Shown piece after piece: positions 3,701 to 46,731 of a DNA stretch of 64,000 nt (positions within the stretch are counted from its first letter, which is position 1; each line of letters begins with the position of its first letter). The position numbers were made by a program, and so were the translations under genes. The stretch spans positions 25,456,001 to 25,520,000 of the forward strand of contig NC_080574.1 in the NCBI RefSeq assembly GCF_029962835.1, given 5' to 3'. The DNA comes from Magnolia sinica (Eukaryota > Streptophyta > Magnoliopsida > Magnoliales > Magnoliaceae). The notes under the pieces were generated by a model that was given only the letters and a program-made list of their open reading frames with translations, made no database searches and had not been told where the DNA came from.

Positions 3701-4779
3701 AACAAGGTGAAAATTCTTTGATTTTCATGTGCTCCTAAGATACTCGAGGAACTTTGGCATCTTTCATGGATATTGCAATGATCTAATTGATTTGTCGAGG
3801 CAGAATCCTGAGAATAAAATTAAAGGTTTGATGTATTAAAAGCCAGAAGTGGTCCAAGCTATTACGAAACAGGATTTGCACATTGTAGGTGTTCATAACA
3901 ACTTGATCATGAAAGACATCACACTGCATATATAACTACTTGAGATTATTCATTCTTCAGTTGTTTCGGCTGTAAATGAAGCTCTTTCACATTTTCAAAT
4001 TTACCAACTGAAGTAAATGTAGTCTCTACTGTAACAAAGCACATAGCACTAAAATCTTGACAGCAGTCACAGATTGCTGTCATTTCGAGTATAGAAAAAT
4101 GCGAGCCATTCATTGAAGAACTGTACTTTTTCCTTTGATGAAGACATTTCTTCTTTTATCAATTTGAAGAAGTGCACATTAGTCCTCCGAAAATCGTAAT
4201 TGCAGACTAAGTAATGAAGTTGAATAACTGCACTACCAGAGCATCCTCTCTAAACTATTAATAGATCTGTTGGTTAATGTAATGTTATAAAGAGTCTTTT
4301 AAAACCATGTGTACCTAAACCTGTATATCAATGAGAAGGATACTTTTCTTTTGCACTACCCACATAAGTCTACTGGGAGTTCAAATCATTACCTTTGCAG
4401 TAAGGTCTATTTTCCTCAGGATTGAGCTTTTGTGTAAACTAATAGTTCCTAAGTGGCAAGATCCAATATAAAGAACACAAAAGGTACATAATAGATGTAT
4501 TTCAAATTACCTACAGTTTTACAGATTTGAAATCCAAGAGGTGTTTAATTTGTGCTCAAATAAAAATGATGAAGGATAGCCGTCTACGTCATTAAATGGA
4601 TATGACCCAAGAAAATCCAGGAATAAGCATTGCTCCCATAGATTGAACAAAAAATATTCCTAGTTTTCCAATCGAATAAGTTTATTTTATTTTATTTTAT
4701 TTTATTTTTTTGAGAAATCACAATTTTATCAATAGGTAGAAGAGGATTCCTCACAAAGAATTACAAATAGGATCAAAAG

Positions 4780-4838
<59 letters not shown>

Positions 4839-16267: not shown

Positions 16268-27234
<10,967 letters not shown>

Positions 27235-27265
27235 GCAATTCGCACGAGGTGAGGAGAGGAGAGGA

Positions 27266-27470
27266 GAGAAATTTAGGCCTGTGGACCCCGCCTTTTAGCC
27301 AGCTGGTTTTATGGTAGAAGACAAACCTTCTTTTGCAACTTAGACCTGCACGTGCGGATGACGAGTGTTGGGACGAAAATACCCCTCCTTTTTGCTGCTC
27401 TTTTCACTGGTGCTGCTTTTCAGCGTTTGCTTTCACTCCCCGACGAAAAAAACAGATGCCTCCCCTGCAC
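27266..27470 (+). repeat. Left terminal inverted repeat of the giant MULE
   Basis: Pairs with 45,980-46,176 in inverse orientation. The first 100 bp differ at roughly one base in eight; beyond that, short indels and T-rich sequence reduce the match. Confidence 0.8.
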
Positions 27471-27729
27471 TTCCAACAAAGAACAGAAGTACGAAGGGGT
27501 TTTTTTTTCTCATTTTCCTTACCCAAATTTCTGTGAAGCACCTAGATATCTATCTAGATATCATTATTCTACATTTTTCATATTTCATCTTGGCTAGGGT
27601 TACGTGAAATCCAACGAACTGGTTACATCTCCTTGAAAATTTTCAAAATATTCCCTCACTTGAAAACACCTCTTTACCGCAGCAATCGGAGGTATAGATC
27701 TTGAAAAAAAAAGCTACACTCGTACAATG

Positions 27730-29085
27730 GCATTGCATGCAAAGTTTAGTCAATTCCATATGTTAGGCTTAGTCGATTTCATGCGTTAGGCTTAGTTAAG
27801 TTTATGTGTTGATTGATTGAATCCATGTCAAACTCGCTCAATTCAATTTGAAGCTCACTCAATTCTATGTTAGGGCTCACTTGATCTGATGCTACGCTTG
27901 CTAAATTCCATGTTTACCCTGCTCAATTTCATGCTAGGATCGCTCAATTTAATGTTTGCCCAGCTTAATTTCATGGTAGATAAGGTCAATTCAATTTTTG
28001 TCTCATAAATATCATACTAGGATCGCTCAATTTAATGTTTGCCCAGCTTAATTTCATGGTATATAAGGTCAATTTAATGTTTGCCATGATAAATTTCATA
28101 CTAGGATCGCTCAATTTAATGTTTGCCTAGCTTAATTTCATGGTAGATAAGGTCAATTTAATGTTTGCCGCGATAAATTTCATGCTAGGATCGCTCAATT
28201 TAATGTTTGCCCAGCTTAATTTCATGGTAGATAAGGTCAATTTAATGTTTACCTCGATAAATATAATGCTAGGATTGCTCAATCTACTATTTGCCTAGCT
28301 CAATATTATCCTATGCTCGCTCAATTTACAGTTTGCCCATTCAAGATCCATGCAATGCTCGCTCAATTTAATGTTTGCCCTGCTCAATATCATGTTATGC
28401 TTGCTCGAATAAATGTTTGGCCAACTCAATATCACGCTATGCTCGCTCAAAATATTATTTGCCCACATCAATATCATGATATGCTCGCTCGATTTATCAT
28501 ATGCCCAGCTCAATATCATGCTATGCGCTCTCGATTTAATGCTTGGTTGCATAGCTGAATTTATAGTTTGTCCTGCTCAATTTTCAGTTTGCACCATTCG
28601 ATTTCATGCTTGCCACGCAAATGTGTCGGATTTTTCCGCTGAATTTTATGTTTGCCCCGCTTTTTTTCATGCTTGCCCCGCTCATTTCCTAGTTTACCCT
28701 GCTCAATTTCATGCTTGCCCCGCTCATTTGCTAGTTTGCCCTACTCAATTTCATGCTTGCCTCGCTCATTTCCTAGTTTGCCCCGCTCAATTTCATGCTT
28801 GCCCCGCTCATTTCCTAGTTTGCCCTGCTTAATTTCATGTTTGCCCTGCTCATTTCCTAGTTTGCCCCGCTCAATTTCATGCTTACCCTGCTCATTTCCT
28901 AGTTTGCCTCGCTCAATTTCATGTTTGCCCTGCTCGTTTCCTAGTTTGCCCCACTCATTTTCATGTTACTACCGCTGAATTTCTTATTTACCCCACTGAA
29001 TTTCTATTTTGACCCGCTTAATTTTCAGGTTGTCCTGCTGAATTTCATGTGTGCCCTGCTCAAACTGATAATGCTTCCCTCGCTC
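27730..29085 (+). repeat. Left subterminal tandem array of the MULE
   Basis: The first part (27,930-28,270) repeats a roughly 85-bp unit with 'ctaggatcgctcaatttaa'. The second (28,300-29,000) is built of roughly 21-bp motifs such as 'ctcaatttcatgcttgcccc' alternating with 'ctcatttcctagtttgcccc', a 42-bp double unit. Because 21 is a multiple of three, long meaningless cysteine-rich reading frames run through it. Confidence 0.85.
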
Positions 29086-29244
29086 AATGGCATGATAGAT
29101 AGTGTCACAAAAATAAACAAGCACCACTTGAAACTGTTCGTTAACAACGAAGGTCCTTTATTATTTAATCAAGTTTTGTCATATGGCATGGTTCCATTGA
29201 TTTTCGATTCACTGATAATGTGTCATTGTATTGGTTTTCAGATA

Positions 29245-31646
29245 ATGGCTGCAAGAATCATGTGCTCTTTTGGCGGGGAGTTAGAATTTGAAAACAAGCG
29301 ATACTCGTACACGGGTGGAACATTAAAACAAATGACGCTACGTCTCGAGACTACGTACGAGGAGCTTCGATCTAGAATTTACAAGATTATTAAGAGCAGA
29401 CCAGAAGATTGTGATATCAAGATGAAAGTATTAAATCCTTGCACTAACAAATCAATGCCTCCAATCGAAATTGAAGACAACGACGACGTCAAAGAGTTCT
29501 TGTCTTACCAGTTTGAGCATTCGGAAAAATTCATCCTGTTTGTCATCGAAACAATCCAACACATCAATACCACAACATATGTGGACAGTGTGGCTGAGGA
29601 GTATGGCGTGGAATTCAAATATAATCCTTCTCCATTACAAATGGTAGTAAGCAATGATCAATTACCCGAGCCGCCGCAAACAGTAAACTTCGTGACTAGG
29701 CAAGTCAGTGGTGCAGTTGACATTAATAGTAATTATGAATACAACACACTGCCATTAGCATCAATAGCAGATCTGCCATCATCATCTACCATCCCATCTG
29801 TGCGTGTAAGCGTCATTCCACTTCGAGACCTCCCCAAAACATCAAACCTCATGACTCGTCAAGTTCTCGCGCCATTTGATGATGATGCACTCGCCAATGC
29901 AAAAATGCAGGAATATACTAATTTGTTATGTGAACCGACCGATATAACTGACGGGCAAACGTTTAAGGACAAGAGTCGGTGCTAGTATGTTTTGAGTCAA
30001 TTTGCAATTCAGAATAATTTTCAGTATAGATTACTATACTCAAATTCGATAAGATTTATCGTGGTGTGCTTCGAAGATGCATGCGAATGGAGGGTTCATG
30101 CATCTTGGGTGAGTGACACAGGTATATTCAAAATACGGACTTATACATAAAAATACACGTGCGGCATGGCATGGAAGAAGAGCGATCACCAGCAAGCCAG
30201 CAATAAGCTAGCGTGTGATCTGGTTATTAGCCGCATTAAACAACGCCTAGGGTTGATGTCACGTGACATTATCTTTATCATGCAAGAGAAATATAATATT
30301 CGTATTAGTTATTGGAAGGCATGGAAAGCTAAGGAGCTTGCAATGAATCACATGATGGGGTCTTACGAAGACTCCTACAATAAACTCCCTTTGTATTTGC
30401 ATGAGTTGAGGAGGGCCAACCCAGGGACAATTACTGCCGTTTCTGTAAATCAACAGACTTGGAGGTTCGAGAGATGTTTTCTAGCTCTCGGATAATGCAT
30501 TCGAAGTTTTCAGAAATCATTACGGAGGGTATTGGCTATTGACGGGACACACTTAAAGGGTAAATACAAGGGTGTGCTATTCATCGCCACGGCCTTAGAT
30601 GGGGACAATCATATATTTCTACTTGCGTTTGGCATCGGGGAATCAGAGAACAACATCAGTTGGAATTGGTTCCTTACCCACCTTAACAATGTGTTAGGGT
30701 CTGTGGAGGGTCTTGTCATTATATCCGACCGACATAAAAGTCTAATGAAAGAGGTTCCCCAAGTCTTCCCGCCTGCAATCCATGGGTATTGTGTGTACCA
30801 CATCTATAGAAACTTGGTGAACACTTTTAAGGACAAGTCATTGGAGATGTATTACTGGATGGCTGTGAAGATTGCAGGAGGGCCGAATTTGAAAAAATAA
30901 TGCATCATATCGAAATCGCCAATCCCCCAGTACATGCATGGCTGGCAGAAATTGGGTATGAGAGATGGGCATCTTTGCACTTTCCAGGAAGAAGATTTAA
31001 CTTGGTCACGACAAACATTTCTGAGTGCGTTAATGCCCTTTTTAAAGAAGCACGCGAATATCCCGTTACGAAATTGATAAAGGCTGTAATATTGAAGATA
31101 CAAGAATTGTTTTACAAGAGACAAGAATCTACAGCATCATTTGTGGTCCATTGACATCATGGGTGGAGAAACAGTTAAAGGATATCGTGCAGAAGGCGTG
31201 AGATGTTCGTTGCCATGCTATTTCTCGAGATGAGTACTATGTCGTTGGAGATTATAACGATACGGTGAAGCTCAGTGAGTTTTCATGTACATGTCGTGAG
31301 TTTGGCGTGAAGGGGTACCCTTGCATGCATGTCCTGTCAGCCTGCATAAACTACAATTTGGATCACTACTTATACTGCTCCCCATTCTACACGGCGCATA
31401 ATTACCTGGCCACGTATAGTGAATCGGTGTATCCAGTACGCGACAATAGCGAGTGAAAAATTTCAGCGGGGATAAAGGAGTATTGTGCCCAGATTAAACC
31501 CCCCAAGATAGAGAAGGTCAGCTGGAAGATCCAAAAAGCTTAGAATTTCATCGCGTGGAGAGTAATTGAAAACAGTAAAGTGTGGGCGATGTAAACAAAC
31601 TGGGCATAATCGCCAGTCGTGCAAGTTTCCAATACCCGGTGTATAG
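29245..31646 (+). pseudogene. MULE transposase, decayed
   Basis: The ATG at 29,245 follows a TTTTCAG acceptor-like site. Residues 1 to about 105 resemble the PB1-like N-terminus of KI-type MULE transposases (CSFGGELEFENKRYSYTGG, then FILFVIETIQ). A MuDR-type region follows (FAIQNNFQYRLLYSNS), then the DDE core with VLAIDGTHLKGKYKG near 30,525 and VIISDRHKSL near 30,716, and CVYHIYRNL. Next come a SWIM finger at about 31,280-31,345 (FSCTCREFGVKGYPCMHVLS) and a C-terminal CCHC knuckle (CGRCKQTGHNRQSC) ending at TAG 31,644. In-frame stops occur near 29,983, 30,145, 30,493 and 30,898, and the frame shifts between 30,890 and 30,910 and again near 31,155-31,265. About 800 codons of intact length is normal for the family. 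Confidence 0.85.
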
Positions 31647-31672
31647 CATATCGTGTAATTTATGTAATTTAT

Positions 31673-31730
31673 ATACTTTGTATGATACATACAATTGAAA
31701 GTTATATATTGCTCCTAGTTGATCTTCATG
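31673..31730 (+). repeat. 58-bp direct repeat, copy 1
   Basis: Identical to 32,381-32,438 except at one base (ttatAtatt versus ttatGtatt). It begins 'atactttgtatgatacatac' and ends 'gatcttcatg'. The two copies bracket the helicase fragment. Confidence 0.95.
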
Positions 31731-31831
31731 TATAACATATCGTGTAAAAATGCACCAACTGTCAGCCCTATCTATACATGCATTCCAAAATGCCCCCTTA
31801 TATTGTAAAAAGAAATTATCCACTATATTAC

Positions 31832-32248
31832 CTGCATAATAAGGGTGACATCTGGATAATCAACGCCGTGTGCAGATACATCAGAAGTTACAAGAATAAG
31901 ACCTTTTGACTTCCGGAACTCATCTCCAACCCTGGTTCTATAGCTCTGCAGCTTTCTAGAATGGATCTCCCACACCTTCAGATTCAACTCGGAAAGAAGG
32001 TTAGCAACCAGTCTTGTGACCATCGCAGTAGCACAAAAGACAAGAACCTGCAATTAACTTCAACTGGTATAAACCAAAGGTTGCGGATCGAAGAATCTTG
32101 GCAAGAGGAGTAAATTTGATTTCGGTAATTATGACCAAGTAATGATGCATACCTTATAGTCAATATCCTCTGATATATGTTTTGTGAGAATGCTATATAG
32201 TATTGAAAAATGCGTGTCAAGAGGGGCAACTAAATGTGTCTGTCTGAC
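31832..32248 (-). pseudogene. Captured two-exon fragment of a DEAD-box RNA helicase gene
   Basis: Exon a is 32248-32153 (VRQTHLVAPLDTHFSILYSI, ending EDIDYK) and exon b is 32047-31832 (VLVFCATAMVTRLVANLL, EIHSRKLQSYRTRV, LVTSDVSAHGVDYPDV). Both are whole, in phase 0, with AG/GT borders and a 105-bp intron. They correspond to the start of the helicase C-terminal domain of the plant RH25/RH26/RH31 group. The usual SARGVD motif reads SAHGVD here. No upstream Q/Walker motifs and no downstream HRxGR exon were found nearby, so this is a genomic fragment of 104 codons carried by the MULE and not a working gene. Retention of the intron shows DNA-level capture. Confidence 0.8.
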
Positions 32249-32380
32249 CTAAGTCACAGTCCACATTGAAATATTTACGGAAAAAGTAACTGAATAGGTT
32301 GAGCCACCCATCTAAAAAAATTTGTCATCAGCAATGAAGAAGAAATCATGTATATGGTTTACCTGTGAGTGTGTCTCCTC

Positions 32381-32438
32381 ATACTTTGTATGATACATAC
32401 AATTGAAAGTTATGTATTGCTCCTAGTTGATCTTCATG
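32381..32438 (+). repeat. 58-bp direct repeat, copy 2
   Basis: Partner of 31,673-31,730. Together they mark off a segment of about 650 bp holding the helicase exons. Confidence 0.95.
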
Positions 32439-33368
32439 ATTCTCAAGTTAGAACATGTTGAAGGAATCTCACCACTTAACCCATTGCTATCAAAGACAGA
32501 TTCAAATTAGCTCACGAGTGCCCCATCAGCAAGGCATCCGACCAGATCAACGGTCCCAATCAGCACACACGTCAGCGATGGGTGTGGTGGTGGAGCAACA
32601 CCTAATAGAACTTCACGAAGCACAACATAATAGCATCTCTCTATGCCACATTGCATCATTCAGTACAGAATCTTTATGCATATTATTGGATGGGTAATTA
32701 GTGAAAATATGCCCACTGACTAATGGAGAATAAAATGCTATAATCGACATTCCTAAACCACGAAAGCAAGAAAACCTATAACTGATTCGTTAATAGGGTT
32801 CTTGGATGGGTAATTTGTCACTGTTGATAAGAGCTTGAGAGCACGAATAGGAGATATAGTATGTATCAAGTAATCTTATTGTGATAAGATTCAAATTTGA
32901 AATTTCTCTCTATACAATAAAAATATATAATATGTAAGGGAAACGAACAAGTTGAATCTTTACCAAATTCAGGGAAGAAGTCATATATGCACTTTATTAT
33001 GGATATTGATAACTATCTGAAACCTGACTGGAATCAATCAGAGCCAGAAGATAATAAGCATCCAAATGGCATCAAAGGCAGCAAGTTCACATATCATGAG
33101 AAAACATATAAAATTGCCATAGACAACAAATTCATTAGTTCACCAAATAAAGAATTTAGATGGCAAGCTGTAGTAAACTTACCTAACACTAAATACTATA
33201 ATCAAAATAAGTACCCCAAGTTTAGGCACCGAATTCATAGTCCCCTGCATCAGTTAAAGTAAAACTAGCGCCACTATTTAAAGAAACAGTTCGACAATAA
33301 TATCCGATAGGCTTGGCATCCCAAAAAGATACTTGATGCACAAGCCAACAGACATGAGTAAATACAGT
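32439..33368. other. MULE interior, unassigned
   Basis: A 91-codon plus-strand frame at 32,987-33,262 resembles no family I recognise. Nothing else can be supported here. Confidence 0.3.
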
Positions 33369-34686
33369 CTAGCTGGATGGACCGGCAACCCGTGGAGCGA
33401 CATCATCACGCCGGCAGGTGATCATGGCAATAAGGTTGTCAATTTTACGCTCGACCCGGTCGATACTATTCTGAATGGCCTCAGAAAACTGCTCTAGTCG
33501 TGTCATTCGTCTATCCTACTCATCCATGTGCCTAATAATATATGCCATGTGGTTGCGGTATGGCATCCTTCGACTGGTATGACCTTATGAGGGTCTTGGC
33601 ACCTCACACTGCTCTCCCTCCGTAGGATGGTCAGTGTCGGCTGCCTCTGTCTCAGCCGCGTCCGTCTCTGCAGCATCTGTCCCCACTGCCTCTGCTTCTG
33701 TCTCTCCTATAAAATCTTCATTGCGCCTTACTGATGTCAATGCCCCTTTCAACCCCAGTTTCATGCGCTTAATGTTGTTTTGTGTAAACATTTTCACGGG
33801 TCTGGGTCGGTCAATGGTGGGCATCAGGCCAACATGATGGGAGAGTAAGCATAATAGGTATGGGAATGGAATGGCATCCCTTCTGGTGGTCACTATGCTG
33901 TCGGCAATTATTTGAGTAATGATGGTGGGTAGACACAGAGGAATACCATGACAGATGCTGTATAGAATATCTAACATATACGAAGTAATGTCAGACTTGT
34001 TCGAGTCCCTCGGATATACATTCCAGGTGAAGATACTGTGTAGCACCTTGTACTTGTCTTCCAGGTGCGTCGCTCTCAGTGCATTACTCTTATGCCATGG
34101 AACATTCTGTCCATTACAAACATACTTCGTCATTTCTATCCGCACAGCTGGGTCATCAATGTTGTGATCCGTTAAGCCTCGACCTATGGCTAGAATCGCT
34201 AAAAGTTGTGCAACTACCCTAGTATTAATGGTGGTGGTGGTCTCTCCAATGGTCACCTGAAATGAAGCAGGATGTATTACTGGCGAGTGACAGTATGATA
34301 GAAATATGATCACTTGCTCATTTCTAACTGTCCCTCCAAAATCTAATAGTTTACTCCACCCAACTTTCTCCAAAATCTGTGGAATCCCAAATTGCTGGAT
34401 GCACGCTCGATCGACCTTCTTTTCATAAATGATTTTTTTCGGACGTGATATTTATCGTGCATATTCGCAGGGGGAGGAGGAACCTCTGGGATCAATTGTT
34501 CTGGTTGTATTAGTGAAGGGGGATCCTGAATTGGAGTACTCCTTTGAGTACGAGCTCGCCTAACCGGCGATTCGGACGGGGAAGTCCGTTCTCTGCCCAT
34601 TCCGATGTACGTCTTGTACGGAGTTTTGTACGATCTCCCCTGGATGACTCTCCAACCATAGCATTTTTTCCTTTATCCTTAGGCAT
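33369..34686 (-). pseudogene. Unknown MULE-resident ORF with basic N-terminus and C-terminal coiled coil
   Basis: The frame starts with MPKDKGKNAMVG and a basic, Ser/Pro-rich stretch. A globular region follows with YEKKVDRACIQQFGIP and EKVGWSKLLDF, then IFLSYCHSPVIHPASFQV and about 150 more residues. An acidic Glu/Ala/Thr run comes next, and the end is a predicted coiled coil (QNSIDRVERKIDNLIAMI). It is broken in a few places. The overall plan recalls the 'putative plant transposon protein' domain found in plant mobile elements, but I am not sure of the match. Whether it belongs to the MULE or is an older passenger cannot be told from this copy. Confidence 0.5.
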
Positions 34687-36179
34687 TATGAATGTTGCGA
34701 TGATAGTGCCTGTTGCAACCATTAAGAGATATGATAAAATAAGTCAATTAAGGTAATTAAGGTGATAAAACCATCTGAAGGAAATCTATTGATATTATGT
34801 GTGAGAATGTTCCCTTTGTTCAAAATTTACTCAAAATCAGTAAGTGGTTCATATGCATGAAATTTGGTCACAACTATACTCTTACAAAAGAAACATTAAA
34901 AGATTTTCTTTTCAATTGAGAAATTTCTCATTAAAGGAAGGAAAACACATCACAGTGGAAGGAAAGAATCCTCAATGACAAGGAAGGTATGGCTAATCCC
35001 TCGTCCACGAGATTGGCATATCTACAAAACACTTCCGTTATTGCTTCACATGGATCCTTGCAACAGTCAAGTGCTACTTTCCATCACACCCTTCAACTAA
35101 ATTAGTCCCTTCGAAAGCAACAAATCAACAACACTTGGTGAATTTTAAAACACAACAAAGCAATGATGGATCACCAGGAGTTAAAAATAAAAGCAGTGAT
35201 GTTTATGGGTCACCTGCTCCCATAGCCAGTGATCGACAGTACTAATGGGTCACTCACCACCCATATTACTTGAGACATGAAAAAGTAGAAACAATTCAAG
35301 TAAACAATATCATTCAATACATTCAAATTGTAATAAAAGAAGACAACGGTGGGAAAATAAAGGGAAAATGTTTTTATGTCAACATATGCATATAGATTGA
35401 CATAACATATACGAGAAAAACAGATTGTTAGAATAAAAGAATGGTACATATTCAACATTCACATCCTATCACCCCAATGAAGATCTGTGCCTCTACTGTT
35501 GTCAAACTGTTCATTTGCCGGCCAAGGCAATTAAGGTAATCCGGGGACACATAGTCAAGTCATTGCTCCCCAAATCGTATGATCAGTGTTTGCAATCTTG
35601 ATAGCGTCGGTATCACAGTTCACACAAATTTCAGATATTTGGTCTAACATAAAACACCCAACAACAGCAATGATTTTTTTCCCTTTATTTCAGGATTTTC
35701 TTCACATAACTTACAACGACAAACGCAGGTTAGACTACATTCCTCTGTTCTTAAACCAAAGACCATCATCATAGGCTCATAGATTTGTAACTGGGGCATC
35801 TCTATATAGGAATGATGAATAAGATAGACTCCAATGAAACTTCACCACCATTTCAAAAATGGTGGGGACATGACCATCATATATATTGTATAGCACGTTT
35901 CCCAAATTAGTAATGTTTAACAAGAAGATCAAGAACTTATCCACCATCAGTACTTCAAGAACCTATAAAACACTGACATAGCATTTCATATCGATTGTAA
36001 TGAAGACAAACATACCGAGATCGTCAAAAAAGAAATCCCTTGAAGAGCCCCGTTGCTAATGTGGAGAAATCCGGTTGATATGAAGTGGATCGAATGTTTT
36101 GGAAGAAGGATTCTAAAAAAGGAATTTGAGAGAAATAAATGATGGTTGGTGAAAGCAGTTAATGCTGTTTTTTTTTTTT
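34687..36179. other. MULE interior without recognised genes
   Basis: AT-rich sequence with no supported ORF, RNA gene or repeat border. A CAGTGTTTGC motif near 35,584 recalls a hAT end, but no partner was found. Confidence 0.3.
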
Positions 36180-37235
36180 TTAAATCGATCATTGTCGATT
36201 ATATCAACAAGTTGTCGATATATCGACAATATCGAAATTTCGACGGACAGACCACTGGAGAGTTCAGTTCTGTAATCGATATTATCAACCACTAGTCGAT
36301 ATATCGCCAATATGCTGTTGATATTATCTAGAACATGTCGATATATCGAGTTAAAATGGAATTCTTGGAGTTTTCTTACTGGATACATTCAGACGTAAGT
36401 CGATATATCGATAAGTGACGAAAAATCTATAATAGATATATCGACAACCTGTCGATATATCGACATATTATGAAAATGATCAAAAGTTCGCTGCAAATTT
36501 GCACTTCAGATTCGATATTATCGATACCTCGTCGATATTATTGACAACTTATGTCGATTATTTTTGTGATATGTCGATTATATCTACAACTTACGTAGAT
36601 CATATCCACGATATGTCAATAACATCGACCGTACATTTCTGGTTGGTAAATTCGTAGATATATCGACATATTGTTGATGTATCGTCACGTATGTCGATAT
36701 GATATATAAATTCTCGATATATCGATTAAATATGAAATTTTTGTGTTTGGTCGCTGGACAAATGAGGACATAATTCGATATTATCCACAAGATGTAGATA
36801 TGTCAACATGTCATCTGCCATCGATATATCGACATGTTGTCGATATATCGATTAAATATGAATTTTTTGGGTTTCGTCGCTGGACAAATGAGGACATAAT
36901 TCGATATTATCCACAAGATGTCGATATATCGACATGTCATCTGCTATCGATATATCGATAGGTGGTTGATATATCGATTAAATATAGAATTTTTGGGTTT
37001 GGTTGCTGGACAAATGAGGACATAATTTGATATTATCCACAATATGTCGATATATCAACATTTCATCTGCTATCGATATATCGACCACTTGTCGATATAT
37101 CGATATACACTGCAATTTCAGCAAAGCTTGCTGGACTGTTGTCATCCATATTCGATATTATCGACCATGTGTCGATATTATCTACGACTTATGTCGATAA
37201 AATCGATGATATGTAGATCATATCAACGTTTGCAA
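36180..37235. repeat. TATCGATA satellite with a 126-bp higher-order unit
   Basis: The stretch is full of 'tcgatatatcgacat' palindromic motifs. From about 36,738 to 37,115 three copies of a 126-bp unit are clear: 'gctggacaaatgaggacata' starts at 36,753, 36,879 and 37,005. Upstream the short motifs continue without the larger period. Confidence 0.85.
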
Positions 37236-37578
37236 ATTTTGCTATTTTTTTTGTCTATTTTTTTGGTGTATTTTTTTTTGAAATTTATTCATGTACCTTT
37301 TTGTTGGTGTTTTTTTTTTTTTTTTTTTTTTTAAATGTTTGGGTTAGTTTGTTTATGGAGGTGTCTTTAAAGAACATTTTGATGGATCTTCTGAGCAATG
37401 CTTTGAATGATGTTCGAAATGTTCGTTCCAATAAGCACATTGCATTGATAGGTATATTTTGTACTTAAGACCTATTAGATGTGTTGTTGAAAGTGATGGG
37501 GACATGTATTGGGTGTCAAGAAATCTAGAGGTTCGTATACAATTGACAAATTATAGGAATGCATGCTTGTGATTGTTT

Positions 37579-38125
37579 AAGAGGGCTGGTGAATTATCTG
37601 TGGTAGAACTAGAGAACCTCATGGTGATTGTTGCCAACCCCCACCAGTTCAAAATTCCAGACTGGTTTTTGAACAGGAAGAAGGATTACAAGGATGGGAG
37701 GTATTCTCAGGTTGTCTCAAATGCACTAGATAGGAAGTTGAGAGATGATTTGGAGCGATTGAAGAAGATCAGGAACCATCATGGTTTGAGGCACTACTGG
37801 GGTCTCCATGTTCGTGGTCAGCACACCAAAATAATAGGCCGCAGAGGAAAGATTGTTGGTGTCTCCAAGAAGCGTTGAGTGCTTTTTCTTCTCTTCTTTT
37901 TTCAGTTAACCATGTTAGATTGGCCTGGTGAGATGTATTTTGAGTTTTAGAATTGTTTAGTGGTTGTTCCTTCCTGTTTTTGTTTTACAATCCAGTCTGA
38001 GCTGGGTTCTAGTTTTTGCAATATTTGGATCTTTTGACTGAATTTATACTTCCCTATGGGCCCAAGTTATTAGCGGATTATGATGGGTGAAAATCTAAAG
38101 ATTAAAAAAAAAAAAAAAAGAGTAG
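37579..38125 (+). pseudogene. RPS18: 5'-truncated processed retrocopy of ribosomal protein S18 (uS13)
   Basis: From 37,579 the sequence reads [18 protein letters not shown] and on through [17 protein letters not shown] and [20 protein letters not shown] to VGVSKKR and TGA at 37,876. That is the C-terminal two-thirds of plant cytosolic S18, without introns or breaks. A plausible 3' untranslated region and a run of about 17 A (38,103-38,119) follow. gtgattgttt at 37,569-37,578 and gtgattagttt at 38,126-38,136 look like the target duplication, the pattern left by LINE-driven retroposition. Substitutions such as RHYWGLH for the usual WGLR and HTKII for HTKTT suggest no selection. It lacks its own start codon. 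Confidence 0.85.
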
Positions 38126-38219
38126 GTGATTAGTTTATTTTCACTCTTGCAATAGATAGTCAAATCGCTAAATAAGAATTGTTTTTTTTATACTTCTCCA
38201 ATGTCTCAAATATATATAA

Positions 38220-38400
38220 ATGCCATCAGGGGTTTTTTTTGCACCATGAATTTAGGGGGTTTTGAGGGGATTTCAAATCTCCTAATATGTTTCGCACCAT
38301 AAGGTAATTGGGGGCTTTCAAATCCAAGGGATTTGAAATCCAAGGTGAAAGCTTGGATTACATTTAAAATCATTTCAAATCTTGGGTGCATTAGAAGAAT
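38220..38400. repeat. Fragment of the 'ggatttgaaatccaagg' MITE family
   Basis: Inverted 'gatttcaaatc/gatttgaaatc' arms match the element at 12,182-12,846. Its borders are not resolved. Confidence 0.4.
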
Positions 38401-38708
38401 GAGCAAAATGATCATACAGGTTTCAATTTTAATATTTTCCACATAATACTCACCCAGTTTCCCCTGTTGCAGTTTGGCATGAACCCATAGTTTCCAAACA
38501 TGGCGTAGAGAAAACACAAACATCTCTAACCTCCTTTTAAAAATCACCCCATTGCAGTAAAAAAGAGTAGGAAGTGCCCTACAGTGGTTGCATCATTGAG
38601 GATATCGAGACAAACTGAAAATATTGCGAGACAGTATAAAGTTCATTTCATCATTTACTAAAATTACAGAGTATGCTATACATCGAAACTTGCACTTCCG
38701 GCAAGTAT

Positions 38709-38855
38709 GCAGAAAATTTCCAAGTATATGCATTTCAGTGCGAGTTCTTTCTCTAATCATGATAGACTTGAGAGGAATTCAGATCAACCCTCCCAAGGCT
38801 ATCGTGATTAGAGAAGGAACTCGCACTGAAATGCACATACTTGGAAATTTTCAGC
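38709..38855. other. Strong hairpin: 57-bp arms with 33-bp loop
   Basis: Arm 38,709-38,765 and arm 38,799-38,855 are inverted copies agreeing at 53 of 57 positions (shared core 'tgcatttcagtgcgagttc'). Three of the four differences would be G:U pairs in one transcript sense or the other. The hairpin sits about 70 bp beyond the stop of the minus-strand Ulp1 gene, so it could be transcribed in its 3' region. Size and shape resemble a young microRNA or siRNA foldback; nothing shows that it is processed. Confidence 0.75.
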
Positions 38856-40020
38856 ACTCCAAGATTACTGTAAACCTCCGAATAATACATTCTTACAAAA
38901 ATTTTCTCCCATGCACTGCACAAATATCACTTCCTGACTACAGACAAGCAATCATATGTTATTGACTTCCTCCAATCGGAGGTGAATTTTTGCATGTCTA
39001 TTCCCTCCAAGGTGAGACCGCTACCTAAAATGTCAATGAATTTCATCACGAATATACTGCAGTCATAACCATTATTCTGCTTTGGCGCGGATTCATCGAA
39101 TCTGATGGTCTACTTCTTCCCTTCAAGCGCAGTACTGTCTCCAGTGGCATGGAAGAGAACGGGGAGTGCATCGGTCATATTCTTCATCTTATGCTTGAAC
39201 TTCGGCGTTAGCTATGTGTATAAGTTATCCACAATAACGATTTCACTTTCTCTAGGATAGATGACAAGCAAAAACCAATGTGAATTGTCATGATTTATTG
39301 GCACATAAACCTGTCCATGATTCACAAAATAATACATTTGTTAAAACATGATAGAACATATAACAGTAAGAGATGATATTCTGTGACGAGTGCATTACCT
39401 GTTCATAACACCAAATCACTCTAGCATATGGTTTATCTCGCTGTCTGGAAATTGCATAGGCCGTGTTTAGCTGGCCTATTAGCGACAACCGTTCTGACGC
39501 CGAATTAGAGGCCCGGTATGCGATCAAAACCGACAAACACTCCTCGAGGCTTTGCTGTTACAAACATGATCAAAGTTCCATACATATAATAAAATAAAAT
39601 TTTCAAACAGATTAAGGATTGTCGTAATAAACAATTACCATAAAATACGTAGGACAGAACTTGCAATTATGATGATATGCTATTGAGAGGGCGTTATGTC
39701 TTTTCTCAAGGAAGTCGATGTATGTGTCGATAGCCTAATCAATAGGATAATACGATTTTGTCATAGATTCCTATAACAATTAATTACATGGCAATCGATG
39801 CATATAGAGAATAAATTAGTAATGCTTACCTCGCTATCAACCTAGGCATCCTTTATCCATATCGTTCTTAACCATTTCCTATCTGACGTGTCCTTTTTTG
39901 CTTTATATCAGTCCTCTGCCTCTTTCACCTCCTGTGCGGATAGTATCCTGAAAGGGCCCATCTGTACAGGAAATGGTATCGGAGAAGTAACAAAAGTTGT
40001 TACTTGCTCGGATTCACGAA

Positions 40021-40620
40021 CTGCCCCAGGGGTTGTATCGAATGCAGACAGGGACAAGTATGGAGAAACCTTGTAATATGACGGCTTCGGTATCCTTTTG
40101 GTTCTCCTTTCATAAACGGGAGGAGAAGTGGATGTGTGTTCAAGTTCTTTATATTCAGTATCATTTAATTACTTCTACTCTATTCCTCAACTCCTCACCC
40201 TCCTCCTCCATCACAAAATGCCCCCTCTGTTTAGGACTACCTTCCTTCTCCTTATTAAACTCATCCCTCTCATTCGCTAACTTTTCCTTATCCTTGAAGA
40301 ACGATTCCTTATCCGCCCCAGGGGTTGTATCGAATGCAGACAAGGACAAGTATGGAGAAATCTTGTAATATGACGGCTTCGGTATCCTTTTGGCTCTCCT
40401 TTCATAAATAGTATGAGAAGTGGATTCATTCCATACATTACCTTTGACCTTACTATACGATTGTACATCAAGATTCACATGTCCAAGTTCTTTATCTTCA
40501 ATATTATTTACTTCCACGCTCTTCCTCAACTCCTCACCCTCCTCCTCCATCACATTACGTTCCCTCTATGTACGACTACCTTCCTTCTCCTTATTAAACT
40601 CCTCCATCTCATTCGCTAAC
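40021..40620. repeat. Tandem duplication inside the coiled-coil linker
   Basis: 'ccccaggggttgtatcgaat' and about 270 following bases recur 292 bp further on (40,021 and 40,313). The trailing part recurs at a spacing of 339 bp, so one copy has gained about 47 bp. Both copies keep the charged KDKEKLANE.(D/E)EFNKEKEG coding frame. Confidence 0.75.
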
Positions 40621-41187
40621 TTTTCTTTGTCCTTGAAGAACCATTCCTTGTATACAAAGAACAACTCCTTCTCCCTCCTCAGTAACATTTCCCTGTCATC
40701 AAACAGTGCTTCTTTCCTTCTCATCTCTGCCCTCTCTTTTCTTAATCTGTCCCTCTCATTTTTCAATTCCTCTCTCTCCTTCTTCAACTCTTCCCTCTCA
40801 AAATTAAATTCCTCCATAAGAACAACATTCGGTACACCACCCCTCTGTCCCTCTCCCTCTACGCCTTTCTCATCGCTATCATCTGACTCGTCACCCTCCT
40901 CGTAATCAATCTCATTACCCTCCCCATCATCTTCTTGGGTCTCAATAAGCTACAAAAATATATAAATGGATATGTAAGAGTAAGGATAATTTACAATGGC
41001 AGAAATGAAATTACACCTCGTTTTCCATAACATCTCACCTGAAAACTGTCACGCAAAGAGTGAACGACATCCGTTTCCCATTCTCATAGCGTTAGTTCTA
41101 ATTTCATTACTACTGTGTCTGCAAAGGAACAACGAGTAATGTTAAAAAAAAAAGCATATACGTCAAGTTAAGTGAAGTAAATGATGT

Positions 41188-41189
<2 letters not shown>

Positions 41190-41258
<69 letters not shown>
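41190..41258. repeat. (TA)n microsatellite
   Basis: About 34 TA units between the DUF1985-like part and the coiled-coil part of the Ulp1 gene. Confidence 0.95.
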
Positions 41259-41262
<4 letters not shown>

Positions 41263-42289
41263 TACAGCTTTACCCTCGAAAATAGGATGTATTCTGTTAT
41301 ACCTCCAACCCTTCCAGCCTCGATATTGAATGAAGTGTAGAATTTGATGCAGAATGTATGAAGCAACACAGTCTTGTAGGGCCGGTAATATCTCTACTGC
41401 CCATACCTGTTAGAATGAAATTGCACCAGGTTAAAAATCCATAATTGACTATAGAGGGAAAACATACACAAAGTAAAAGGTGTTCTTACTTGTAGAGGAA
41501 GGATGCAACCACATATAGTGTATCGAGGGGAACTTGATGCAGCAACAGCAGATTCGATTCCTTACGATATTGTATAGTATCCCAAACTACCCCAGGGATA
41601 CCTATAGAAATCATCTAGCAAGTCAACTTGGTAAATATAATCCATGTTGCACATGGTTTTCGGTTCGGTTCCCCTAAGAAAGTGCTCCACAACTAGAAGT
41701 AGGGAAACCTTCACGACGTCCTCATGCTCATTGGTGTAAACTAATCTCTCAAACACCTCCATTAGTTGCTTCTTTAATACTGGATATTTTTTGAAGTATT
41801 TGTCTCTTAATGTACTCGTAGTGTAATGATTTTTCGGTACAATTAGATCTCCAATCTTAAGACCGGTAATGAGGGCGAAGTCCATCTCGGTAAAGTGCAA
41901 TCGCCTCCCCTTAATCTCAAATAGTAGATCACTTTTATATCTTACAAAAAGAAGGTGAAATAGAGCCCCTAAAAATCTAAAGAATGTAACATGCAATAGA
42001 AACGAGAAAGGAGATTGCCTAAACAAATTTAGGCGACTATCGTACTTCTCCACTCCACCCTTCACCTTGTCAAACCACCATGTGAGTGTACACCTACATG
42101 TTGGGTTGGGGATTACAGCAGAATATTCGTCGTCTGCAAAGATGGATTAAAAAACATATCAAACATAAAATTCACAAGATAAACGTTGTGGACAAAATCA
42201 GACTATGTTGAAAAGAATGCAGCATTTCATTAATTTGAGCAAGCTTCATATGAAATGGAGATAGAACTAGAACGGGAAATACTGAAAAT

Positions 42290-44970
42290 TGTGCAAGCCA
42301 AACTACCAACGTAAGCAAGACAAACTATAATTTGATCGGGACAAACATGAAATTGAGTGGGGCAAACTACATAATGAGCAGGGCAAGCTAGATATTCAAT
42401 AGGGCAAACTATAAAAAATTCAATGCATAATCTCCTGATCAATGTGTATTCCTGATTAATCTCATTTTTCAATTATTCAACTATATCATTTTACCATGTT
42501 CAGCGTTAGCTAGATTAGTGAACACATATATGTTTTGATGCAACAAGAAGATGTTATTTGTAATTGGTTTTGTTGGTTGGTTAATTGGTCACAATTTCTT
42601 CATGAAATGGGTTGGATTCGTATTAGATCGAATAAGTACATGTAATCAACTAGGGCAAACATGAAATTGAGCGGGGCAAATTAAAAATTCAGCGGGGCAA
42701 ACTAGAAACTCAGCAGGGCGAACATGAAATTGTGTAGGGGAAACTAGAAAATCAGCGAGGCAAACATGAAATTCAGTGGAGCAAACTATGAATTCAGCGG
42801 GGCAACCTGGAAAATCAGCTGGACAAACATGAAATTGAATGGGGGGAAACATGAAATTGGGCGGGGCAAACTAGAAAATGAGCGGGGGAAACATGAAATT
42901 GAACGGGGGAAACATGAAATCAGTAGGGTAAACTAGAAAATTAGCGGGGCAAACATGAAATTGAGCAAGGCAAACTATAAAACTAAGATAATAATGGTGA
43001 TGATGATGCATTTGTAAATTTATACACATATACAAACATACATACTTATAGAGATATATAGATATGCATATGCACATATAGATACAAATACAAGCATGTG
43101 GTTTTGATTGTATATGGCGATCACACAATGCAATTATTGAGATTCCGGAAAAGTCTATCTTTTTCATAGCCAACCATCAATACCACCTAAGACCTATCAC
43201 TTGCCATGAAAGAGAAAAAACCAATAGCATGTGAATCTGTTGCAGACCTAGGCCAGAGAAAAAACCAACAGCAAGACAAGCCTAGAAGCTCGACTGTCCA
43301 CTACCATCTCATGAGATCCCTATGTCATCCCTTCTTTTAGTGAAGTAAATTGTACAAATCTTGTGGGATGGCTATCAAACAAAGATCAAACTTAAGCATA
43401 TCAAAATAAAAAACGTACCTAAATAAGACAAAGATCAAACTGAAGCAGATCAAATCTTGTGGGATGCCATCCCTTCAATTTCCATGATAAATGAATTAGA
43501 TTATGGAACCAGCTAAGGAAAACGTGCCTAAATAAGACTTTTATTTCACTACTAAACTATGGAAGTGTCCCAGAAGAATATTTTATGGTTTTGAGAATAG
43601 GTTAAGGTTTATGTTTAGGAAATCGGTTACAGGTTAATGGCAGACATGAAATTGAGCGGGGCAAACACGGAAATGAGCGGGGCAAGCATGGAATTGAGCG
43701 GGACAAACTGAAAAATCAACGGGGCAAACTATAAAATCAGCGGGGCAAGCATGAAATTGAGCAGGGGAAACATGAAATCAGCGGGGCAAACTAGAAAATC
43801 ATTATGCCCACTGTTTCCTATGGTATGATTCACTTGATATTTTGATATGCTTCAATTTGGGTTACATTTAGGTTACAGGTTTAGGTTTAGGTTATAGGGA
43901 TTTGAGAATACATTTAGGTTACAGGTTTAGGTTTAGGTTATAAGTATCGGTTATAGGTTTAGGTTTAAGTTAGGTTATAGGTTAAGGTTTAGGTTTAGGA
44001 AATCGGGTTCGGGACCGGGTTTAGGTTTGGGTTTTCAAGTTTAGGTTTAAGTTAAGGAGTTGAGATTAGGATTAGGTGTAGGTTTATGTTTAGGGATTTG
44101 TGAATACATTTAGGTTACAGGTTTAGGTTTAGGTTATAAGTGTCGGTTATAAGTTTAGGTTTAAGTTAGGTTATAGGTTAAGGTTTAGGGAACTGATAAT
44201 AGGTTAAGGTTTAGGTTTAGGAAATCGGGTTCGGGACCAAGTTTAGGTTAAGGAGTTGAGATTAGGATTAGGTGTAGGTTTAGGTTTAGGAATTTGAGAA
44301 TATATTTAGGTTATAGGTTTAGGTTTAGATTATAAGTGTCGGTTATAGGTTTAGGTTTAAGTTATGTTATAGGTTAAGGGTTAGGGAATTGAGAATAGGT
44401 TAAGGTTTAGGAAATCGGGTTCGGGACCGGGTTTAGGTTTGGGTTTTCAAGTTTAGGTTTAGGTTAGGGAGTTGAGAGTATAATTAGGTGTAGGTTTAGG
44501 TTTAGGGATTTGAGAATACATTTAGGTTTTAGGTTATAAGTGTAGGTTATATGTTTAGTTTTAAGTTAAGTTATAGGTTAAAGTTTAGGGAATTGAGAAT
44601 AGTTTAAGGTTTAGGTTTAGGGATTTGAGAATACATTTAGGTTTTAGGTTACAAGTGTACAATATAAGTTTATGTTTAAGTTAGATTATAGGTTAAGGTT
44701 TAGGGAATTGAGAATAAGTTAAGGTTTATGTTTAGGGATTTGAGAATACATTTAGGTTTTAGGTTTAGGTTTAAGTTTTGAGTAGGGGCAAACATGAAAT
44801 TGAGTGGGGGAAACATGAAATTGAGTGGGGCAAATTAGAAATTGAGTAGGGCAGGCATGAAATTGAGTGGGGCAAACTGGAAAATCAGCGGGACAAACAT
44901 GAAATTGAGTGGGGGAAACATGAAATCAGCGGGGCAAGCTATAAAATCAGCGGGACAAACTAGAAAATCA
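42290..44970 (-). repeat. Right subterminal tandem arrays of the MULE
   Basis: Three blocks (about 42,290-42,980, 43,640-43,800 and 44,780-44,970) consist of 'ggggcaaacatgaaattgag' and 'gggcaaactagaaaatgagc' motifs. These are the reverse complement of the 21-bp motifs of the left array. The interval 42,980-43,640 between blocks has no recognised feature. Confidence 0.85.
43850..44775 (+). repeat. Telomere-like TTTAGGT array with higher-order period
   Basis: Degenerate 'aggtttaggtttaggttata' units fill the interval. A landmark 'aaatcgggttcgggacc' recurs at about 44,010, 44,221 and 44,409, giving a higher-order period of roughly 190-210 bp. The motif differs from the plant telomere repeat TTTAGGG. 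Confidence 0.8.
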
Positions 44971-45082
44971 TTATGTCTACTGTTTCCCGTGGTATGATTC
45001 ACTTGATATTTTGATATGCTTCAATTTGGGGCTCAACCTCTTAAATTAGATGGAAAAATGGATGGACGACATGGATATACTA

Positions 45083-45815
45083 CAGGAAACAGATTGGCTA
45101 CTCCCCCTGCCACCAGCCAATGGCTAGTGTTCGGTGCTCTGTGGGCCCCATCATGATGTATGTGTTTCATCCATGTCGTCCATCTATTTTTATAGATTAT
45201 TTTATGATATTATACAAAAATTGAGGTATATCCTGATCTCAATTGAACCACATTATAGGAAATAGTGTTTAATGAACATCGACCATTAAAAACTTTTTCT
45301 GGGCCATAAAAGTATTGGGTCAAGATGATCTTTGTTTTTAGCCTTCATCTGGGTCTTTATCACCTAAAAAACAGATTGGATTTCAGACAAACAGTACAGT
45401 GGGCCTCAAGAGGATTTAAATGATGGATATCCAATCACCATTGTTTTCCTCTAGCAGGCCACCAGCCAAATTTCCATCTAATTTGGGGCTCAACCCCTTA
45501 AATTAAATGGAAATTGAGAGGACAAAATGGATGAACGGAATGGATGAAACACATACACCATGGTGGGGCCCACAGAGCACCGACCACTAGCCACGTACAC
45601 CATAGTGGGACCCACAGAGCAACGACCACCAGTCATGTACACCATGGTGGGGCCAAAGAGCACCGACCACCGGCCACGTACACCATGGTGGGGCCAAAGA
45701 GCACCAACCAGCAGCCACGTACACCATAGTGGGGCCCACAGAGCATCGACCGCCAGCCACGTAGATCATGGTGGGGCCCACAGAGCACCGGAGGAGTAGC
45801 CAATCCATTTCCTAT
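45083..45815. mobile_element. Foldback MITE with a six-fold amplified end
   Basis: The ends 'taggaaa(c/t)(a/g)gattggctactcc' are inverted. Inside are 'ggtgctctgtgggcccc' on the left and six consecutive copies of 'ggggcccacagagcaccgac' on the right (45,553-45,800), at a spacing of about 41-45 bp. The family is the dispersed 'gggcccaccatgatgtatgt' foldback type. It is inserted near the right end of the giant MULE. Confidence 0.7.
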
Positions 45816-45979
45816 ACCCAAACATTCAATGTGGGCCCAACTGAGTTTAAAATATACCCGTGCTGCGTGCTTTCTTCGCTGGACCGACCATTTTTAGAAG
45901 AAGTCAAATGTTGATAGGGGGGCCCACAAAAAGGAGTTTTTTGTCTTTCTAACCGGGCGAAGAAAAGGGGTGAAAGCAA

Positions 45980-46176
45980 CGGTAGTAAAGTAGCAGTGGA
46001 AAGGGAAAGGAAAAGGAAACAGTGGAAATGGAGAAGAAAAACAGCAGTGAAAAGGAGGGGTATTTTCGTCCTGAAATTCGTAATCCGCACGTGCAGGTCT
46101 AAGTTGCAAAACGAAGTTTGTATTCCTCCATAAAATCAGCTGGCTAAAAGGTGGGGTCCACAGTCCTAAATTTCTC
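45980..46176 (-). repeat. Right terminal inverted repeat of the giant MULE
   Basis: Partner of 27,266-27,470. The outer end is 'cctaaatttctc'. A foldback MITE starts only 30 bp outside it. Confidence 0.8.
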
Positions 46177-46206
46177 AAGAAGAGAATCGAGTGGGCAGTT
46201 ATTTTG

Positions 46207-46731
46207 GACGCGGATTGCGTCCTACCCCCGCCCGTCTACAGCTGGGAACGGGCAGCAGCTTCGAGTGCCCACTGTGATGTATGGGTATTATCCACACCGT
46301 CCATTCATTTTTTCGTATCATTTTAATATATGAAAACAAAAACGAGGAAGATCAAAGGCTCAAGTGGGCCGCAACATAGGAAGCAAGGGTGATAATGATT
46401 CTCACCGTTGAAACACTTCTAGGGCACACTGTGATGTTTATTTTCCATCCAACCTATTCATAAAGTTAAATAGACGGATGAAGAGAAAACAAAAATATTA
46501 GCTCCATCCAAAACTTCTGTGGCCCCAAGAAGTTTTCAACGGTAAGAGTTTAATCCCCATTGTGTAGTCCACTTGAGCCTTGGATCTGCCTCATTTTTAA
46601 CATTATACCTAAAATGATAGGAAAAAATGTATGGACGGTGTGGATAAAACCCATACATCACAGTTGCAACTTAAAGAAGCTGCTGCCCGTTCCCAGCTGG
46701 AGACGGGCGGGTATAGGACGCAATCCGTGTC
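46207..46731. mobile_element. Foldback MITE, GACGCGGATTGCGTCC family
   Basis: The outer about 53 bp of each side are inverted copies (GACGCGGATTGCGTCCTA; then CCCGCCCGTCT and CAGCTGGGAACGGGCAGCAG) with about five differences. Inner arms carry 'gatgtatgggt(a/t)ttatcca' and 'ccgtccat'. Total 525 bp, non-coding. A nested pair of the same family lies at 53,983-54,766. Confidence 0.75.

What the first reader, a model, noticed from the sequence alone, without database searches (positions are those of the whole stretch)
27266..46176. An 18.9-kb Kaonashi-like MULE with two coding modules, captured host DNA and satellite arrays
Matching inverted ends, a MULE transposase on one strand and a DUF1985/Ulp1 gene on the other tie nearly 19 kb into a single element. 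That is very long for a MULE, and it carries an unusual cargo: helicase exons, a third ORF, several satellite arrays and a hairpin. The ends and contents are seen in the sequence, the KI-type naming follows known plant MULEs, and the unity of the element is inferred.
Basis: partly seen in the sequence, partly recalled or inferred. Interest (0 to 1): 0.85.

Follow-up and report, generated by a model that had tools for sequence, protein, structure and literature searches.

The report
Giant three-gene jumping gene with satellites
This stretch is a dead copy of a very large plant jumping gene whose repeat arrays sit at its gene promoters and switch sequence between related families, as expected if they are landing sites for a protein that helps the element escape the plant's silencing.

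Summary
The window carries an 18,911-bp Mutator-like element (MULE), 27266-46176, with 139-nt, 88% terminal inverted repeats. Its own 9-bp flanks have decayed (5/9). Unity is shown by other copies: of 17 end pairs (window included), 11 have perfect 9-bp duplications, 3 have 8/9 and 1 has 7/9, spanning 15.7-49.7 kb. Gene order is shared in the copies read. The satellites and 'third ORF' are standing parts, not cargo: a transposase; an antisense DUF1985-Ulp1 gene of VANC/KIU type; an antisense PF20167-like ORF3; inverted 21-bp arrays upstream of both outer genes; a TCGATATATCGA array 5' of ORF3. Captured host DNA is a helicase exon and a ribosomal-protein retrocopy. A second, 25,034-bp family (TSD ATTAGAAGC) has the same genes but an unrelated array motif: 190 GACCGyGA and 1 GGCAAAC, against 0 and 31 in the window. 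This matches the pattern reported for Arabidopsis VANC anti-silencing proteins and their tandem-repeat targets (PMC5735166, passages). I propose the arrays are such targets; binding was not tested. It is a new variant of a known kind.

The parts
27257..27265 (.). 5' flank where the 9-bp target duplication would be (AGGAGAGGA); only 5/9 like its partner at 46177-46185
27266..27404 (+). 5' terminal inverted repeat (start GAGAAATTTAGG); family copies match to about 27470
27910..29062 (-). 5' array of the 21-bp unit (read GGGGCAAACATGAAATTGAGC on -), upstream of the transposase gene; 53 units over 27701-29100 at >=13/21 matches
29245..31640 (+). Transposase gene (MuDR type), broken by in-frame stops and frame changes; MULE domain at 30496-30897; a C-terminal CCHC-like knuckle is visible (motif from recall)
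31850..32050 (-). Captured helicase exon (Helicase_C; 'DEAD-box' is from recall); found in 5 of 6 other element regions read (not at C6:15.5, which also lacks the genes)
33372..34672 (-). ORF3, conserved third gene (PF20167-like); longest open frame 33588-34451
36180..37230 (.). Array rich in the palindrome TCGATATATCGA (partly 126-bp period), 5' of ORF3; missing in C3_87, which lacks ORF3
37573..38117 (+). Retrocopy of a ribosomal protein (S13/S18 family), 5'-truncated, with a poly(A) stretch; longer in the sibling at C2:39.35-39.39 Mb
38981..39340 (-). Ulp1 (Peptidase_C48) domain, broken by two in-frame stops in this copy
40164..40949 (-). Charged, coiled-coil-like middle part of the DUF1985-Ulp1 gene (judged by eye)
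41484..42146 (-). DUF1985 exon of the VANC/KIU-type gene (194-aa open frame 41565-42146)
42300..42980 (+). 3' array of the same 21-bp unit, inverted to the 5' array, upstream of the DUF1985 gene; 37 units over 42291-44980 counting all three blocks
43639..43801 (+). Second block of the 21-bp array
43870..44770 (+). TTTAGG-rich degenerate repeat (about 196-bp higher-order period) between 21-bp blocks; also in C14, C3_87, C3_93 and P1
44778..44970 (+). Third block of the 21-bp array
45550..45790 (+). 42-bp satellite (about 5.8 copies) next to the 3' end; also in the four typed 3' ends read (C14, C3_87, C3_93, P1)
46038..46176 (-). 3' terminal inverted repeat; 3'-type end extends to about 45830
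46177..46185 (.). 3' flank (AAGAAGAGA), partner of 27257-27265

Best explanation
The interval is one decayed copy of a large TIR-type MULE family. Shown: paired ends with 9-bp duplications at many loci, shared gene order, three genes, and arrays at fixed places. Inferred: the element moved by its own transposase. Its DUF1985-Ulp1 protein acted like Arabidopsis VANC/KIU proteins, binding the 21-bp-spaced motifs upstream of the transposase gene and of its own gene and clearing silent chromatin there, so that both outer promoters worked. A related family kept the genes but has a wholly different array motif, so each family would rescue only itself. ORF3 would be the VANB-position gene; the TCGATATATCGA array before it would be its own control region. 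Non-autonomous derivatives (one read in full) keep TIRs plus arrays and would ride on proteins of full copies.
For: One unit: 11 of 17 end pairs have 9/9 duplications, 3 have 8/9, 1 has 7/9. Colinear copies. ORF3 antisense in 16 of 17 pairs; DUF1985 antisense in 12 of 17 among the 150 of 1,424 candidates scored, and a 13th. Arrays upstream of both outer genes, inverted to each other. Second family: TIR 122 bp 93%, 25,034 bp, TSD ATTAGAAGC 9/9, same three genes in the same order, commonest motif spacing 21 bp. Motif exclusivity: 9 A-type loci have 18-74 GGCAAAC and 0-1 GACCGyGA each; 2 B-type loci have 1 and 190, 1 and 81; first-order Markov expectation at most 3.2 and 1.1. 4,077-bp derivative with TIRs, arrays and TSD TTCCCAAAT. 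[quoted passage not shown]
Against: No binding, methylation or expression data. The A unit has no sharply bounded invariant core: per-position conservation in the window's 5' array ranges 0.47-1.00. dN/dS for DUF1985 is low only against subfamily L057 (0.31-0.39); among close copies (0.65-0.73) it is no lower than in control frames. The transposase N-terminal part also diverged strongly between families (47%), so a transposase reading the arrays is not excluded. The DUF1985 model was worthless (mean pLDDT 34.6), so no DNA-binding fold is shown. Only two motif classes were compared. Tandem arrays can turn over without any binding protein. The window copy's TSD is 5/9.
Confidence: 0.62

Rival explanations
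1. One element, but the 21-bp arrays are subterminal transposase-binding repeats, as in CACTA or Ac-type elements (recalled), not targets of the DUF1985 protein.
For: Arrays lie near both ends, inverted to each other, and are kept in a non-autonomous derivative together with the TIRs. The transposase N-terminal part is only 47% identical between families A and B, so it could have changed its site together with the arrays.
Against: Arrays start about 0.6 kb from the 5' end and 1.2 kb from the 3' end of the window element. Family B has further blocks of the same motif between Ulp1 and ORF3 and between ORF3 and the transposase. The middle of the transposase stays 74-79% identical.
Confidence: 0.17
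2. One element, but the arrays are neutral minisatellites that grow by slippage in non-coding DNA and have no bound protein.
For: Copy number and block number vary freely between copies, and several unrelated repeats (TTTAGG, 42-bp, 126-bp) coexist.
Against: Same position relative to the outer genes in the regions read (7 of 7 each), the same 21-bp step in two families with unrelated sequence, mutual exclusion of motifs, and retention in a TSD-flanked derivative.
Confidence: 0.18
3. The interval is a chance assembly of two or more nested elements whose ends happen to match.
For: Window flanks match at only 5 of 9 places; interruptions do occur in sibling copies (about 24 kb in P1, 13.4 kb in P2); one copy (C3:87.12 Mb) lacks the ORF3 module and the C6:15.5 region lacks most of the genes.
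Against: 15 of 17 end pairs, typed 5' and 3', have 7-9 of 9 matching flanks, and the 23,265-bp copy on C14 is colinear with the window from end to end.
Confidence: 0.03

Closest known systems
VANDAL21/VANDAL6 MULEs of Arabidopsis with VANA, VANB, VANC (PMC5735166, PMC10398659: passages read)
   Same: MuDR-type transposase, a DUF1985 protein gene, a third gene, short motifs in tandem repeats in non-coding parts that differ between related families; 9-bp TSD and 46-174-bp TIRs are listed for the VANDAL group in PMC6446971 (passages).
   Different: Here 13 of 17 end pairs span 15.7-29.7 kb, arrays reach kilobases, the DUF1985 gene has a Ulp1 domain, the motif is different, and the third gene is PF20167-like with its own palindromic array. 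Anti-silencing is untested.
Kaonashi (KI) MULEs / KIU genes (PMC2528002, PMC13317346: passages read; the original papers were not read)
   Same: Ulp1-bearing gene in reverse orientation to the transposase; three genes; VANC-type gene with Ulp1.
   Different: KI elements are described as non-TIR; this has 139-nt TIRs. Satellites of this size are not mentioned in the passages seen.
Ulp1-carrying TIR-MULEs of grapevine and melon (PMC2528002, passages)
   Same: TIRs together with a Ulp1 stretch (either orientation in grapevine).
   Different: No three-gene plan with family-specific arrays is described in the passages seen.

Membership tests
MULE (Mutator superfamily) | MULE/MuDR transposase domains | tested here: met
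   PF10551 1.3e-20 in the window; PF03108 4.2e-14 and PF10551 5.3e-18 in sibling P2
MULE (Mutator superfamily) | 8-11-bp target duplication (range from PMC6446971, passages) | tested here: met
   9/9 in 11 of 17 pairs, 8/9 in 3, 7/9 in 1; the window itself 5/9 and P9 2/9
VANDAL / VANC-bearing MULE | DUF1985 protein gene | tested here: met
   PF09331 1.2e-15; family B 6.8e-14
[quoted passage not shown]
   (two motif classes compared)
VANDAL / VANC-bearing MULE | Protein binds the motif and removes DNA methylation | not testable with these tools
   needs protein and methylome data
VANDAL / VANC-bearing MULE | Transposase falls in the VANDAL clade | not tested
   no tree with named reference transposases was built
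Kaonashi (KI) MULE | Ulp1-bearing gene opposite to the transposase | tested here: met
Kaonashi (KI) MULE | No terminal inverted repeats (non-TIR) | tested here: not met
   139-nt TIR at 88%; 122 bp at 93% in family B

The most novel reading that the evidence does not exclude
The element carries two separate sequence codes: a fast-switching 21-bp 'password' array read by the DUF1985-Ulp1 protein at the promoters of the two outer genes, and a slower, conserved TCGATATATCGA operator array at the third gene, possibly read by ORF3 itself. Families split by replacing the whole password in all their arrays while keeping genes and operator. That would make this plant genome a natural library of paired anti-silencing proteins and targets.
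Probability: 0.3. Interest if true: 0.78.

Novelty: new variant of a known kind. Interest (0 to 1): 0.62.

Why it matters
VANC anti-silencing with tandem-repeat targets is described from Arabidopsis in the papers seen. Here the same logic appears in another plant (probably a magnoliid; inferred only) on a larger scale, with two families in one genome that share genes but use mutually exclusive motifs. That makes co-evolution of an anti-silencing protein with its DNA targets directly testable, and offers a possible reason why these MULEs are so long. If the host is a magnoliid, the DUF1985-Ulp1 fusion also bears on the dating of that capture, which the review PMC13317346 (passages) places at the split of monocots and eudicots.

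Tried and rejected
Rejected: the arrays as captured satellite cargo (they recur at fixed places); 46.9- and 43.3-kb spans as true element size (interruptions of about 24 kb and 13.4 kb; P8 and P10 were not read inside); ORF3 as a nested stray element (antisense in 16 of 17 pairs, and in the same place in family B; but C3:87.12 Mb lacks it, and very many other ORF3-like loci exist, 23,525 first-look candidates of which 135 were scored).

Led nowhere: an empty site for the window copy (its own two flanks, plus 38 weaker hits to the left flank, nearly all ending at about 27234); AlphaFold of ORF3 (pLDDT 50.7) and of DUF1985 (34.6), so no fold search was run; profile comparison of ORF3 with DUF1985 (probability 0.1%), tried because both models showed a hairpin followed by helices; a third family at L066 (ORF3 about 40% identical, 8 TATCGA/TCGATA in one kilobase before it, but no TCGATATATCGA, no tandem array, and no DUF1985 or Ulp1 match in 9 kb). 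dN/dS gives only modest support.

Rows left out of the TSD count: alternative or fragmentary end pairings at C6:15.5 Mb (3/9 and 4/9), an inner 3' end in C3:93.0 (2/9), and a second 5' end at C10:27.73 (2/9). L057, the DUF1985-only sister locus, shows TIR-like ends but no TSD. Of three loci chosen by array alone, L060 is a complete element, L061 shows one end and L059 none. C3_87 was dropped from the DUF1985 dN/dS because of a frame change.

Paper searches behind any 'not described' wording; two searches asked for any one or two of several terms, returned thousands of papers with 8 and 12 listed, and show no absence. The key paper on KIU co-evolution in eudicots (PMC9016345) is not held; I used a review's passages on it.

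Full report
WHAT WAS CHECKED. The window lies at C2:25456001-25520000 of a plant genome of 1,838,573,281 bases in 127 contigs. The species is not given. The size, and hits at tens of megabases on contigs numbered up to C19, resemble Magnolia sinica (1.84 Gb, 19 chromosomes: PMC10999834, passages), but that is inference only.

ENDS AND UNITY. The inverted ends are real: 27266-27404 against 46038-46176, 139 nt, 88%. The window's own 9-bp flanks match at 5 of 9 places. I searched the genome with the 5' end (40 scored of 828 candidates) and with the 3' end (40 scored of 2,433), and by eye paired same-orientation ends up to 50 kb apart. With the window this gave 17 pairs. Flanking 9-mers agree at 9/9 in 11, 8/9 in 3, 7/9 in 1, 5/9 in the window and 2/9 in one pair (P9) whose terminus was not found. 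Spans run from 15,699 to 49,699 bp; 13 of 17 lie between 15.7 and 29.7 kb. In two of the four longest (46.9 and 43.3 kb), which were partly read, the excess is an interruption of about 24 kb and 13.4 kb; the 36.3- and 49.7-kb pairs were not read inside. The C14 copy (23,265 bp, TTTTAGGGC duplication) is colinear with the window from end to end, at 86-92% in the long blocks. One mobile unit is therefore shown for the family and very probable for this copy.

GENES. On +: a MuDR-type transposase (29245-31640) with a MULE domain (1.3e-20); sibling P2 shows DBD_Tnp_Mut, MULE and a weak SWIM match (0.062). On -: a gene with DUF1985 (1.2e-15), a charged coiled-coil-like part and a Ulp1 domain. The Ulp1 domain matches Peptidase_C48 at 2.1e-22 in copy C3_87 and carries two stops in the window. 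Also on -: ORF3, related to PF20167 'putative plant transposon protein' (7e-10, under Pfam's cut-off). ORF3 lies antisense within 16 of 17 end pairs; the exception, at C3:87.12 Mb, lacks the ORF3 module. DUF1985 lies antisense within 12 of 17 pairs among the 150 of 1,424 candidates scored, and a 13th was seen; the other four cannot be called absent. In the window the transposase and Ulp1 stretches carry stops or frame changes, so this copy is dead.

CAPTURED HOST DNA. A helicase exon at 31850-32050 (PF00271 2.6e-08) is present in 5 of 6 other element regions read; the sixth (C6:15.5 Mb) lacks the genes as well. A retrocopy of a ribosomal protein (37573-38117, PF00416 2.4e-32; S18 by recall) is shared with the closest sibling (C2:39347279-39394213), where it starts at the methionine. 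It is missing at the same place in C14 and C3_93. Since the two carriers sit at different loci, the retrocopy has most likely been carried by transposition.

ARRAYS. The 21-bp unit GGGGCAAACATGAAATTGAGC forms 53 units upstream of the transposase and 37, inverted, upstream of the DUF1985 gene (at least 13 of 21 matches). In the genome a 30-mer spanning about one and a half units has 9,602 matches with up to 2 mismatches, against 0 for the reversed control. A second array, rich in TCGATATATCGA, lies 5' of ORF3 (42 TATCGA/TCGATA in one kilobase, at most 4 in any other bin). The 21-bp arrays lie upstream of the transposase in 7 of 7 regions that hold a transposase start, and upstream of DUF1985 in 7 of 7 regions where that side was read; the TATCGA array is absent from C3_87, which has no ORF3. 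A related subfamily (L057) has shifted its unit to GGGGCAAACTAGAAGATCAAC. A 4,077-bp derivative (L060), both of whose ends are nearer the 3' type, has inverted arrays and a perfect duplication, TTCCCAAAT.

A SECOND FAMILY. Following a 47%-identical ORF3 led to C12:13579281-13604314. It is 25,034 bp, with TIR 122 bp at 93%, terminus GAGTAATTTACGACTGT and duplication ATTAGAAGC 9/9. It has the same gene order: DUF1985 (55% aa identity to the window) and Ulp1 on one strand, ORF3 (443 aa open) after them, and a convergent transposase (two long open frames parted by one stop). The transposase is 74-79% identical to the window's in the middle and 47% in the N-terminal part. Its arrays consist of an unrelated motif, GACCGyGA, spaced most often by 21 bp and also by 31, 42, 63 and 84. 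They lie before DUF1985, between Ulp1 and ORF3, and between ORF3 and the transposase, with a short matching stretch upstream of the transposase. Counts in the window and the 25-kb element are 31 and 1 for GGCAAAC, and 0 and 190 for GACCGyGA. Across nine A-type loci the B motif occurs 0 or 1 times; in two B-type loci the A motif occurs once each. TCGATATATCGA occurs 11 times in each of the two elements, in blocks that include one before ORF3. Thus the genes and the ORF3 array are kept while the 21-bp motif is replaced. A further B-type locus (L067) repeats the order DUF1985 end, coiled coil, Ulp1, 136-bp array, TATCGA, ORF3.

HOW IT PROBABLY WORKS. In Arabidopsis, VANC proteins (with DUF1985) bind motifs of 8-9 bases in tandem repeats of non-coding regions, including upstream of VANA, and cause loss of DNA methylation; targets differ between related VANDAL families (PMC5735166 and PMC10398659, passages). 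KIU genes are described as VANC genes with a Ulp1 domain (PMC13317346, passages). The present element has the protein, the arrays in the expected places, and the expected family-wise motif replacement. The binding step is inferred. Selection evidence is modest: DUF1985 dN/dS is 0.31-0.39 against sister L057; for the same pairs four of five control frames gave 0.49-1.75, and the fifth, which by my reckoning shares the wobble position, gave 0.39-0.52; close copies show no constraint. Structure models were too poor to use.

COMPARISON AND VERDICT. Works like: VANC/KIU-bearing MULEs. Membership: MULE, met; VANDAL clade, not tested; Kaonashi, not met on the non-TIR criterion. What is new here, as far as the searched library shows, is the combination of long TIRs, mostly 16-30-kb spans, three genes, large promoter-side arrays, and two families in one genome with exclusive motifs.

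Noticed in passing
window 46205-46725: Inverted-repeat element of about 530 bp just outside the 3' end (arms GGACGCGGATTGCGTCCTA... at both sides), MITE-like, read by eye.
   Followed up: no
window 27120-27234: Left flank is the end of another dispersed repeat: the weaker genome hits (75-94%) nearly all stop at about the same base, some 30 bp before the TIR.
   Followed up: partly
L057 (C13:30723500-30733499), 410-8331: Sister locus with TIR-like ends and an open 243-aa DUF1985 frame but no match to the window's transposase, Ulp1 or ORF3; no TSD. About 17 of the 150 DUF1985 rows show a 241-aa open frame without stops, suggesting a recently amplified DUF1985-only derivative.
   Followed up: partly
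window 43870-44770: Telomere-like TTTAGG-rich degenerate repeat embedded between 21-bp blocks; in two to four blocks in C14, C3_87 and C3_93.
   Followed up: partly
window 38709-38857: Imperfect hairpin near the Ulp1 end; its inverted copy also shows in three siblings.
   Followed up: no
about C2:39351010-39375154 in sibling P1: About 24 kb interrupts the 3' array region of the closest sibling, presumably nested elements; read only in part and not identified.
   Followed up: no
family B, C12:13579281-13604314: Motif spacings 21, 31, 42, 52, 63, 73, 84, 105, 115, 136 are all near multiples of 10.5 bp, as if sites kept one face of the helix; they are combinations of only two steps (21 and 31), so the evidence is weak.
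   Followed up: partly
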